Shown here: piece after piece, positions 56,276 through 63,373 of the stretch
Layout: the number at the start of each line of letters is the position of its first letter
Position numbering within the stretch: the first letter of the stretch is position 1
DNA from: Clostridia bacterium
GTDB taxonomy: Bacteria > Bacillota > Clostridia > Oscillospirales > CAG-272
Length of the DNA: 64,000 bases
Assembly: GCA_017536475.1 (NCBI GenBank)
Contig: JAFXHH010000001.1
Coordinates: 1 to 64,000, forward strand
Direction: 5' to 3'
Program-made: the position numbers and the translations under genes
Notes under the pieces: model-generated
The model's database searches: none
Told to the model about the DNA's origin: nothing
What the model saw: the letters and a program-made list of their open reading frames with translations, nothing else

Positions 56276-56303
56276 AAAGTCAAGGCTACAAAAGGAGTCA
56301 AGC

Positions 56304-56406
56304 GTGAAAGTTACTTCTATTTTTACATTGAAGTATGCTTTTTCACGCGCGAATTTTGCCTTTGTGGCAAAATTCATCGATTACTATTTGTGCCGCCGTT
56401 GGCGGC
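56304..56406 (+). promoter_or_regulatory. Structured leader RNA, copy A
   Basis: Three hairpins can form. P1 pairs the first bases (GTGAAA, 56304-56309) with TTTCAC (56341-56346), and ACTTC (56313-56317) with GAAGT (56330-56334). P2 is GAATTTTGCC (56351-56360) with GGCAAAATTC (56366-56375). P3 is GCCGCC-GTT-GGCGGC (56392-56406), just before the ribosome site. P1 and P2 recur in copy B with compatible or compensatory changes. Confidence 0.55.
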
Positions 56407-56420
56407 GGAATGGAGATTAA
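56304..56420 (+). CDS. Leader peptide frame A, paired with 63266
   Basis: A 38-codon frame from GTG 56304, with AAAGGAG 6 bases upstream, stopping at TAA one base before the hydrolase ATG. The peptide shares MKVT, (K/R)YAFSRA, FAF, AK and DY with the frame at 63266, in the same register without gaps to codon 28. Differences between the two are mostly non-synonymous, so conservation seems to act on DNA or RNA rather than on the peptide. It may be a true small protein, a regulatory leader, or a repeat that happens to be open. Confidence 0.5.
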   Translation: MKVTSIFTLKYAFSRANFAFVAKFIDYYLCRRWRRNGD

Positions 56421-56421
56421 A

Positions 56422-58293
56422 ATGAAAAATCCAACTTGGCAAAGACCGAAAACCACAAAAGCATATCTGCATAGACCGCTATCCGAGAGAATAGCTCTGC
56501 TTTGTCCCGATTTCAAGATACTCGATCTTCCGCTTCAGGACAACGGTATTCACGTAGGTCAGCTTGGCGTTGGCTTGCTCGTTCTGCACGGCGACGAGAT
56601 GGTCGGATTTGATCTCGACGAAACCAAGTATCGCCCCGTCGAGTGCGGTCTGCCGATATACGAGGTCATAAATCGCGGCGAGTGCTTGACCAAGGTCGAG
56701 GCATTCGCAGGCAGTGAGCGAAATCCTACAATATATTTCAAGGTAACGCTTGTCAATGATACGATGGAAACTGTGCAGAGCAGTATTGGACTTATGGCGC
56801 GCTCGGGTCAGGAAAAATATATGGTCAATCAGCATCAGGAGGGATATTGCCCCTACCGCCCCAACGAAAAGAATTGGTATATGCTGAAGCGGACGTGGAA
56901 CAAGATATCAGACAACCTTGCGGCAAGCGATATGGGATATCTTTGTGTCAAGTGCGACGCCGAGTGGGTGGATCACTCGAAAAACGGCCATAGCTTTGCT
57001 GCCGCAGACTATTTCCGAGTTGATTATAGCCTTGAGGCAGGCGAGAGTATGTCGTTCACGGGCGCTCTGCGCGCAAAAGAGGAGATATCCGATTTCGATT
57101 ACGATATAAAACGTGCCGAGGCGGTCGAATTTTGGTGTCAGACGGCCGAAAAGATAACCAATCTCCCGAATACCGACGACGAAAGATATCTCGGCGTATA
57201 CAAGCATTGTGCCGTTCAGTGTATGCAGATGATCTCGCGCTACGAGGGTCAGGAGACTATCACGGTACGTCAGGGAGACATCGCACGCTTCGTTTGGCCC
57301 TACGAGGGCGCGCAGGTGCTTGTAAATCTCGAGCGCGCGGGCATAACCGAATACAGCGCTGACGCTTACCGTGGATATTTTGACCGTTGGCTCGTCAAGG
57401 ACGGCGAGGATAAGGGCAAGATCGGAAGTACTGCGGGCTGGGATAACTTTACAGGCTCGGTAATATGGGGACTCTCGGAGCACCTCAAAAACGTAAACAG
57501 CAGAGAAGAATTTGAAGAATTTTTGCCGTATCTTGTGGATATGCGCGATTGGATAGAAAGAAAGAGAATGTCGCCGAGAGAGAACGGCTACGAGCGTCTA
57601 TTCCCCGCGGGAGTAGGTAGCGACTGGGCGGAAAGAGGACAGTTCTGGACGTTCACCGATAGCCATAACTGTATGGCGTTGCGCTCGATGTGCGAGGCGC
57701 TTAAGATGTACGGCTCGGATGAATACAAGCCTACCAAGGAAATGTACGACGATTACTGCAAGACTATCTGTGACATTCGCGACGAGCTCTTCAGCGGTCA
57801 CGAAAACGACGAAATATATATCCTTCCTCACATGCTTGGAATACCCTTTGAGGACAGCGAAAACTACAGCTATTATACCGACGGTGCACCGTATTTGCTC
57901 TACACGGGCTTTATCGAACCGGGAAGCGAGATCCAAAAGAAAATGGAGGCATTCTTCATCAAGCGCGGTCAGTTTGAAAAGGGACTCACGGGCAGAATGA
58001 CGAGCTGTGCAAGTATGTGGGACGAAGCCTACTTCGGCGGCTACGGTGACGTGTGGTACACCATGCAGAGTGAGACCTATTGGATAAAGGCTTGGGTCGC
58101 ATGCGGCGAATACGAAAAAGCCAGGGAATCACTTGACGCGATGCTCTATTACGGAATGACCGAGGAGCACATCGTTGCAGAGCGTTATTGCTCGATAAAC
58201 CCTTGGTATAACCCTTGGCAGCCCAACGGAAGCGGCTCGTCACGAGTGATCGAGATGATGCTTACGTTTTTCGGCAAAAAAGCTGAATTTTAG
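56422..58293 (+). CDS. Probable (alpha/alpha)6-barrel glycoside hydrolase
   Basis: A 623-residue protein. The N-terminal 250 residues are a beta-sandwich (LGVGLLVLHGDEMVGFDLDE, SMSFTGALRAKEE). The rest is helical with Trp-rich turns (GSTAGWDNFTGSVIWG, SDWAERGQFWTFTDSHNCMA, INPWYNPWQPNGSG), as in six-hairpin glycosidases. No exact GH family is assigned. No signal peptide, so cytoplasmic. ATG 56422 is chosen because GGAG is 6 bases upstream; the frame's earlier ATG at 56335 falls inside the leader element. Nine bases separate it from the next hydrolase gene, so the two form an operon. Confidence 0.7.
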   Translation: MKNPTWQRPKTTKAYLHRPLSERIALLCPDFKILDLPLQDNGIHVGQLGVGLLVLHGDEMVGFDLDETKYRPVECGLPIYEVINRGECLTKVEAFAGSERNPTIYFKVTLVNDTMETVQSSIGLMARSGQEKYMVNQHQEGYCPYRPNEKNWYMLKRTWNKISDNLAASDMGYLCVKCDAEWVDHSKNGHSFAAADYFRVDYSLEAGESMSFTGALRAKEEISDFDYDIKRAEAVEFWCQTAEKITNLPNTDDERYLGVYKHCAVQCMQMISRYEGQETITVRQGDIARFVWPYEGAQVLVNLERAGITEYSADAYRGYFDRWLVKDGEDKGKIGSTAGWDNFTGSVIWGLSEHLKNVNSREEFEEFLPYLVDMRDWIERKRMSPRENGYERLFPAGVGSDWAERGQFWTFTDSHNCMALRSMCEALKMYGSDEYKPTKEMYDDYCKTICDIRDELFSGHENDEIYILPHMLGIPFEDSENYSYYTDGAPYLLYTGFIEPGSEIQKKMEAFFIKRGQFEKGLTGRMTSCASMWDEAYFGGYGDVWYTMQSETYWIKAWVACGEYEKARESLDAMLYYGMTEEHIVAERYCSINPWYNPWQPNGSGSSRVIEMMLTFFGKKAEF

Positions 58294-63223: not shown

Positions 63224-63265
63224 AAAAATCCAAAGATTAATATTTGTTGAAGAATGGAAGCCTGC

Positions 63266-63359
63266 ATGAAGGTTACTTTCGCTTCAATAGTGAGGTATGC
63301 TTTTTCACGCGCGGATTTTGCCTTTGGGGCAAAATCAAACGATTATTCTGTAGCAGAAT
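63266..63359 (+). promoter_or_regulatory. Structured leader RNA, copy B
   Basis: Same fold as copy A. The P1 pairings are kept through G-U pairs. P2 is GATTTTGCC with GGCAAAATC, where one base pair has changed from A-T (56352/56374) to G-C (63314/63336). P3 is ATTCTG-TAG-CAGAAT (63345-63359), unrelated in sequence to P3 of copy A but in the same place, before the ribosome site. Confidence 0.55.
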
Positions 63360-63373
63360 GGAGGCCTATATGA
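63266..63373 (+). CDS. Leader peptide frame B, paired with 56304
   Basis: A 35-codon frame from ATG 63266, with TGGAAG 5 bases upstream. Its TGA overlaps the pullulanase ATG as ATGA, so the two would be translationally coupled. It shares MKVT, RYAFSRA, FAF, AK and DY with the frame at 56304. The C-terminal parts differ completely. Real small protein or regulatory leader; see the paired entry. Confidence 0.5.
   Translation: MKVTFASIVRYAFSRADFAFGAKSNDYSVAEWRPI

What the first reader, a model, noticed from the sequence alone, without database searches (positions are those of the whole stretch)
56304..56421. Leader cassette shared by two carbohydrate operons: small peptide plus covarying RNA fold
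Seen: 56304-56421 and 63266-63369 are related cassettes that run from one start codon to the next (118 and 104 bases). Both open a 35-38 codon frame with its own ribosome site, sharing MKVT...YAFSRA.FAF.AK..DY, and ending at or over the next start codon. Both fold into three hairpins. In P2 one pair changed from A-T to G-C, and in P1 two changes keep pairing as G-U. Nearly all codon differences are non-synonymous, which argues for RNA- or DNA-level constraint. One copy precedes a glycoside hydrolase, the other a pullulanase, so a sugar-responsive leader, a translational coupler or a small mobile cassette are all possible. I know no described element with this form.
Basis: partly seen in the sequence, partly recalled or inferred. 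Interest (0 to 1): 0.75.

Follow-up and report, generated by a model that had tools for sequence, protein, structure and literature searches.

The report
Start-codon-targeting IS110 mini-transposons
The 'leader cassette' is one of about 46 copies of a tiny mobile DNA element that lands between a gene's ribosome-binding site and its start codon and brings a spare ribosome-binding site; it is the stripped-down relative of RNA-guided (IS110, bridge-RNA) jumping genes whose guides are set to gene start sites.

Summary
The two cassettes are real and related, but they are not leader-peptide genes or a sugar leader. They belong to a dispersed family: 46 covariance-model hits in this 1.9-Mb genome and hits in 24 of 71 sampled genera of its family. 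Essentially every copy examined sits directly before a start codon, in one orientation, ahead of unrelated genes (recA, groEL, rbfA, dapA, a glycerol-kinase-like gene). Orthologous empty sites in sister genomes show insertion between the native Shine-Dalgarno (SD), which is kept upstream, and the start codon; the element supplies a new SD at its 3' end. The peptide frame is open in only 4 of 40 copies. The same ends bound 1.64-kb autonomous elements in Lachnospiraceae and in the window's own family. These carry an IS110 DEDD transposase, TA cores, and an internal non-coding guide whose sequence (TTANNATG) equals the copy's own start-codon flank in 23 of 25 cases (shuffled mean 4.0, maximum 14). 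A same-genus deletion derivative (L362) links IS110 to the mini-elements. I conclude: non-autonomous derivatives of bridge-RNA IS110 elements programmed for translation start sites. No mobilising transposase was found in the window's own genome; the reason for the conserved hairpins is inferred.

The parts
56290..56297 (+). native SD-like sequence AAAAGGAG left upstream of the insertion (copy 1)
   Evidence: an SD-like motif is found within 16 nt upstream of 32 of 40 copies
56302..56419 (+). copy 1 of the IS110-derived mini-element, from GCGTGAAA to the TA before AAATG
   Evidence: CM hit 56302-56424, 141 bits; boundaries inferred from empty sites and from TA cores of autonomous relatives
56302..56309 (+). 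P1 5' arm GCGTGAAA = left end of the element; contains the false GTG start
   Evidence: A1 columns 1-8
56341..56348 (+). P1 3' arm TTTCACGC
56351..56375 (+). P2 hairpin GAATTTTGCC...GGCAAAATTC
   Evidence: the homologous helix covaries across genera
56392..56406 (+). P3 hairpin GCCGCC...GGCGGC, part of the conserved right end
   Evidence: right end shared with IS110 autonomous elements
56412..56415 (+). SD (GGAG) supplied by the element
   Evidence: invariant columns in A1
56422..58293 (+). gene translated from the element-supplied SD (623 aa; an earlier in-frame ATG at 56335 lies inside the element)
   Evidence: no Pfam family at E 1e-5
63264..63369 (+). copy 2 of the mini-element, P3 largely lost
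   Evidence: CM hit 63264-63372, 86 bits
63370..64000 (+). start of a pullulanase-like gene (886 aa, runs beyond the window) downstream of copy 2
   Evidence: Pfam Alpha-amylase, CBM_48, PUD

Best explanation
The cassette is a non-autonomous mini-element (about 118 nt) of an IS110-family, bridge-RNA-guided lineage whose target is the bacterial translation start site. An IS110 DEDD/serine recombinase with its bridge RNA, supplied in trans, mobilises a donor bounded by (TA)GCGTGAAAG on the left and the GCCGCC..GGCGGC hairpin + GGAATGGAGAT(TA) on the right. It inserts the donor between a gene's SD and its ATG, in one orientation. The native SD stays upstream; the element's right end supplies a new SD at the right spacing, so the gene stays translatable. 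The donor junction (SD-TA-GCGTGAAA) itself looks like a start site, which explains the false leader peptide and the tandem copies. Shown: dispersal, position, orientation, empty sites, shared ends with IS110 elements, and guide-flank identity in the autonomous elements. Inferred: mobilisation in trans, identity of the recombinase in this genus, and a role for P1 in hiding the false GTG start.
For: 46 CM hits in own genome; 29 of 118 family genomes and 24 of 71 genera positive. Of 40 own copies, 36 end exactly on the start codon of an ORF of at least 60 aa, 2 are first units of tandem pairs, and 2 lie a few nt off a start; all 21 matches inspected in other genomes end on an ATG with an open frame of at least 60 codons. 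Empty orthologous sites: e.g. glpK-like GGTGAAATAATATG empty versus GGTGAAATA[GCGTG...GGAGAC]TAATATG occupied; in G010 7 of 18 orthologous starts lack it, and 0 of 21 in G005/G007/G008 have it. About 1.64-kb elements with the same ends encode PF01548 + PF02371 transposases, relatives of IS621 and ISCro4 in the PDB. TA flanks the left end in 15 of 15. Guide equals own flank in 23 of 25, permutation p < 5e-6; five of five in a second IS110 group share 9-10 nt. Elements with the window-type left end AGCGTGAAAG and IS110 genes occur in the same family (L351, L352), and a same-genus deletion derivative keeps an IS110 C-terminal remnant (L362). Published IS110/IS1111 systems move mini-donors with recombinase and RNA given in trans (PMC11208160, PMC11187229).
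Against: No IS110 transposase in the window's own MAG, and in the family close transposases are not enriched in genomes with mini-elements (2 of 9 versus 29 of 118 overall); MAGs often lose multi-copy IS, but this is a gap. In the window's genus the left dinucleotide is CA more often than TA (19 versus 9 of 40), so a TA core is not cleanly duplicated there. The mini-element interior does not match its own flank, so it has no guide of its own. End recognition alone does not explain why P1 and P2 covary.
Confidence: 0.87

Rival explanations
1. A conserved cis-regulatory leader (riboswitch-like or leader peptide) that controls the downstream gene in response to a sugar or another signal.
For: Always in the 5' UTR next to the SD, conserved fold with compensatory changes.
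Against: Downstream genes are functionally unrelated; orthologous genes lack it in sister species; peptide frame broken in 36 of 40; tandem copies; no Rfam match; shared ends with IS110 elements.
Confidence: 0.04
2. A small palindromic repeat of the REP/ERIC/MITE kind moved by another enzyme (for example a Y1 REP transposase or an IS630-type TA-targeting transposase), with the IS110 elements as later users of the same ends.
For: Short, palindromic, TA at many insertion points; no IS110 gene in the own MAG.
Against: No Y1 transposase in the own genome; no terminal inverted repeats as in IS630-type MITEs; both ends and the target match IS110 elements whose guides encode that target; deletion intermediate with an IS110 remnant. 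IS630-type genes were not searched for.
Confidence: 0.06
3. Mini-elements that began as IS110 derivatives but are now domesticated: host selection keeps the hairpins + SD as a translation-tuning 5' UTR module, and movement has stopped in this genus. (This is a later stage of the best explanation rather than a denial of it.)
For: No recombinase found in the MAG; stems covary; the other full-length copies are only about 75-88% identical to the window copy, so no very recent burst.
Against: Presence/absence differs at many start sites between genomes whose genes are 90-99% identical.
Confidence: 0.3

Closest known systems
IS110-family insertion sequences with bridge RNA / seekRNA (IS621, ISCro4, ISEc21)
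   Same: Autonomous relatives carry DEDD_Tnp_IS110 + Transposase_20, the non-coding region lies 5' of tnp as in the IS110 group, a dinucleotide core flanks both ends, and an internal guide matches the target.
   Different: The published targets that I read about are REP sequences, attC sites and short linear targets (PMC11208160, PMC11187229); here the guide is set to SD-TA-NNATG start sites and the element end supplies a replacement SD. The window copies carry neither recombinase nor guide.
Bacterial MITEs and small palindromic repeats (Correia/NEMIS, RUP, BOX, ERIC, REP)
   Same: Short, non-coding, palindromic, high copy, orthologous empty sites, some tandem copies.
   Different: No terminal inverted repeats; fixed orientation and fixed position at start codons; linked to IS110, not IS630/IS5 or Y1 transposases. 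Comparison with these classes rests on general knowledge, not on a search here.
Bridge-RNA mini-donors made in the laboratory
   Same: Ends-only donors are mobilised when recombinase and RNA are given in trans (PMC11208160: 22-bp donor; PMC11187229: mini IS).
   Different: Here nature appears to have made such mini-donors, about 60-160 nt long, in dozens of copies per genome.

Membership tests
IS110-family element (autonomous relatives) | DEDD (RuvC-like) + Transposase_20 recombinase | tested here: met
   PF01548 1.3e-19 and PF02371 8e-20; IS621 and ISCro4 hits in PDB
IS110-family element (autonomous relatives) | Long non-coding region upstream of tnp that encodes a guide matching the target | tested here: met
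   285-296 bp between tnp start and the right end; guide equals flank in 23 of 25, 5 of 5 in a second group share 9-10 nt
IS110-family element (autonomous relatives) | Same core dinucleotide at both element-flank junctions | tested here: met
   TA directly left of the element in 15 of 15; TA in the right junction (GGAGATTA or GGAGATTTA) in all
IS110-derived non-autonomous element (window copies) | Ends homologous to an autonomous partner | tested here: met
   Left AGCGTGAAAG and right end TTACTATTTGTGCCGCC...GGCGGCGGAATGGAGATTA shared
IS110-derived non-autonomous element (window copies) | Insertion into otherwise intact target, shown by empty sites | tested here: met
   deoB, glpK, rbfA, dapA, recA, groEL and others
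IS110-derived non-autonomous element (window copies) | Identical core on both sides | tested here: inconclusive
   Left dinucleotide CA 19, TA 9, other 12 of 40; right mostly TA
IS110-derived non-autonomous element (window copies) | Recombinase partner present in the same genome | tested here: not met
   No PF01548 or PF02371 gene in own MAG; the MAG is 98% complete by markers but repeated IS are often lost from MAGs
IS110-derived non-autonomous element (window copies) | Mobilised in trans by an IS110 recombinase and bridge RNA | not testable with these tools
   needs a transposition assay
Known structured RNA / riboswitch | Match to an Rfam family | tested here: not met
   No match at E up to 1 over the element in 14 loci
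REP element with RAYT | Y1 transposase partner in the genome | tested here: not met
   0 matches to PF01797
Small-peptide leader gene | Conserved open frame | tested here: not met
   Open in 4 of 40 copies

The most novel reading that the evidence does not exclude
A lineage of bridge-RNA recombinases has evolved natural guides for a generic functional site, the bacterial translation start (SD-TA-NNATG), with a built-in replacement ribosome-binding site and a hairpin that hides the false start made by its own left end. Its ends-only derivatives act as portable 5' UTRs that have inserted ahead of dozens of genes per genome, essential ones included, across many Clostridia.
Probability: 0.5. Interest if true: 0.88.

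Novelty: new variant of a known kind. Interest (0 to 1): 0.74.

Why it matters
Bridge RNAs were described in 2024 and few natural target logics are known. Here the target is the start site of genes in general, so the element can land in front of almost any gene, recA and groEL included, and leave it with a working SD. That is a strategy for high copy number at low cost, and it gives a natural data set of guide-target pairs. It also means that 5' UTRs of dozens of genes per genome in common gut Clostridia are element-derived, and that short 'leader peptides' predicted there are artefacts.

Tried and rejected
Leader peptide: rejected, frame broken in 36 of 40. Rfam element: none. REP/RAYT: no Y1 transposase. 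Retro-insertion, suggested to me by copies that keep only the right end: dropped once IS110 ends and internal-deletion derivatives (L257, L272, L287, L362) were seen. A guide inside the mini-element: tested against its own flanks, no excess over shuffles. IS110 genes G007:C20 (L340) and G004:C79 (L350): a different subfamily or a fragment without these ends. Correlation of transposase presence with mini-element presence over 118 genomes: none seen. Ten literature searches found no IS110 element described as targeting SD/start codons; subscription papers and preprints are not held.

Full report
1. What is there. The cassette at 56304-56421 is one member of a dispersed family. The consensus is GCGTGAAA-[about 30 nt]-TTTCACGC (P1), GAATTTTGCC-loop-GGCAAAATTC (P2), ATCGATTACTATTTGTG, GCCGCC-loop-GGCGGC (P3), GGAATGGAGATTA, NNATG. 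In the 23 own-genome copies 95.6% of cells pair and 7 pairs show changes on both sides (shuffles 1.4, sd 1.0). In 17 longer variants from other genera 30 cells have both sides changed (shuffles 12.3, sd 2.9; best slid register 16), with P2 arms as different as AATTCGACC/GGTCGAATT, AAACTTCACC/GGTGAAGTTT and AAACAAACGC/GCGTTTGTTT.

2. Where copies lie. Of 40 own-genome copies inspected, 36 end exactly on the start codon of an ORF of at least 60 aa; two are the first unit of a tandem pair and two lie a few nt off a start. BLAST, which does not require the 3' end, found no copies elsewhere. The 21 matches inspected from other genomes (one from another species of the genus, 20 from other genera of the family) all end on an ATG that opens a frame of at least 60 codons. 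One exception in G084 (L206) is followed by a short broken frame. Downstream genes include recA, groEL, rbfA, dapA, a FGGY kinase, a metalloenzyme-superfamily phosphomutase-like protein and a pullulanase-like protein, so there is no common pathway. The leader frame is open in 4 of 40 copies only.

3. It inserts. The 5' ends of 22 downstream genes were located in six same-genus genomes and their upstream regions fetched. Occupied and empty alleles are clear. glpK-like: GGTGAAATAATATG is empty in G009/G010 and occupied as GGTGAAATA-GCGTG...GGAGAC-TAATATG in the window's genome. rbfA: GGCAGGAGGATTATATG empty in G004/G009, occupied in G000/G010. deoB, dapA, L006, L036, L039 and L040 behave alike. 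By model score 7 of 18 start sites lack the element in G010 and 0 of 21 have it in the more distant G005/G007/G008. The native SD remains upstream (SD-like motif in 32 of 40) and the element's GGAG takes over next to the ATG. Tandem copies sit between a copy's own SD and the ATG (L034, L038, L181, L198, L209, L217).

4. What moves it. A pattern for the right end hits at least 119 genome contigs, many of them Lachnospiraceae, isolates included. In those loci the same end closes three kinds of element: 1.64-kb elements with an antisense gene of about 420 codons, non-autonomous elements of about 265 nt, and very short ones in which the left end is fused almost directly to the right end (L257, L287). 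The gene is an IS110-family transposase (PF01548, PF02371), with IS621 and ISCro4 as PDB relatives. All 15 elements with a readable left flank have TA|[GC]TGTGAAAG, usually just after an SD, and GGAGAT(T)TA at the right. Nearly all have, between the transposase start and the right end, CACTGATTANNATGCTGTC. Its TTANNATG equals the copy's own start-codon flank in 23 of 25 cases (permutation mean 4.0, maximum 14 in 200,000). A second IS110 group (44-48% protein identity) at start codons shows the same in 5 of 5 with another motif, CATAANNATG or similar. This is what a bridge-RNA target guide should do (PMC11208160, PMC11187229).

5. Link to the window. In the window's GTDB family, L351 and L352 are IS110 elements with the window-type left end (TTAGCGTGAAAGTAATG, TATAGCGTGAAAG); L352 also shows the right end (GCAGAATGGAGATTAATATG) at an SD/ATG site. 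In the same genus, G007 carries a deletion derivative of roughly 0.37 kb in which AGCGTGAAAG, an IS110 C-terminal remnant (NPTDLFKVDMPESLKEKQ) and the right end lie between an SD and an ATG (L362). The window copies are therefore best read as further-reduced members.

6. Limits. The own MAG has no PF01548, PF02371 or PF01797 match. Transposase and mini-elements are not correlated across 118 family genomes; short-read MAGs drop repeated IS, but this is not proof. In this genus the left dinucleotide is CA more often than TA. The mini-element has no guide of its own, so it must be moved in trans, which is inferred. Why P1 and P2 are conserved is not shown; P1 pairs the false GTG start created by the left end, so hiding it is a plausible role.

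7. Known or new. Bridge-RNA IS110 elements are known; the two founding papers, searched for these terms, mention no start-site targets or MITE-like derivatives, and ten literature searches found none. The class is thus a new variant of a known kind.

Noticed in passing
L027:735-905 (G000:C3, upstream of dapA): Lysine riboswitch (RF00168, 86.7 bits) upstream of dapA; the mini-element lies between it and the start codon.
   Followed up: no
L029, L035, L076 (P1 loop); L028, L049, L101 (P3 loop): Other small palindromic repeats (ACCGCAAGACGTAG...CCTGTGCGGTAA; ACGGGGTTCYC...GGGGTTTCCCGT) are nested in the loops of the element; a sequence similar to the second lies beside an IS110 gene of another subfamily in L340.
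   Followed up: no
L337, L338 (IMG/VR contigs): Two predicted viral contigs carry the autonomous IS110 element at a start site, a possible vehicle between hosts.
   Followed up: no
L243, L264, L268, L276, L297, L241: A separate family of about 265-nt non-autonomous elements with the same right end and start-site position in Lachnospiraceae.
   Followed up: partly
L219-L297, contig ends: Many pattern matches lie within 150 nt of a contig end, so these elements seem to break MAG assemblies.
   Followed up: no
window 56335-56421: Gene callers may start the downstream gene at the in-frame ATG at 56335 inside the element (ORF listing does), adding about 29 element-derived residues.
   Followed up: no
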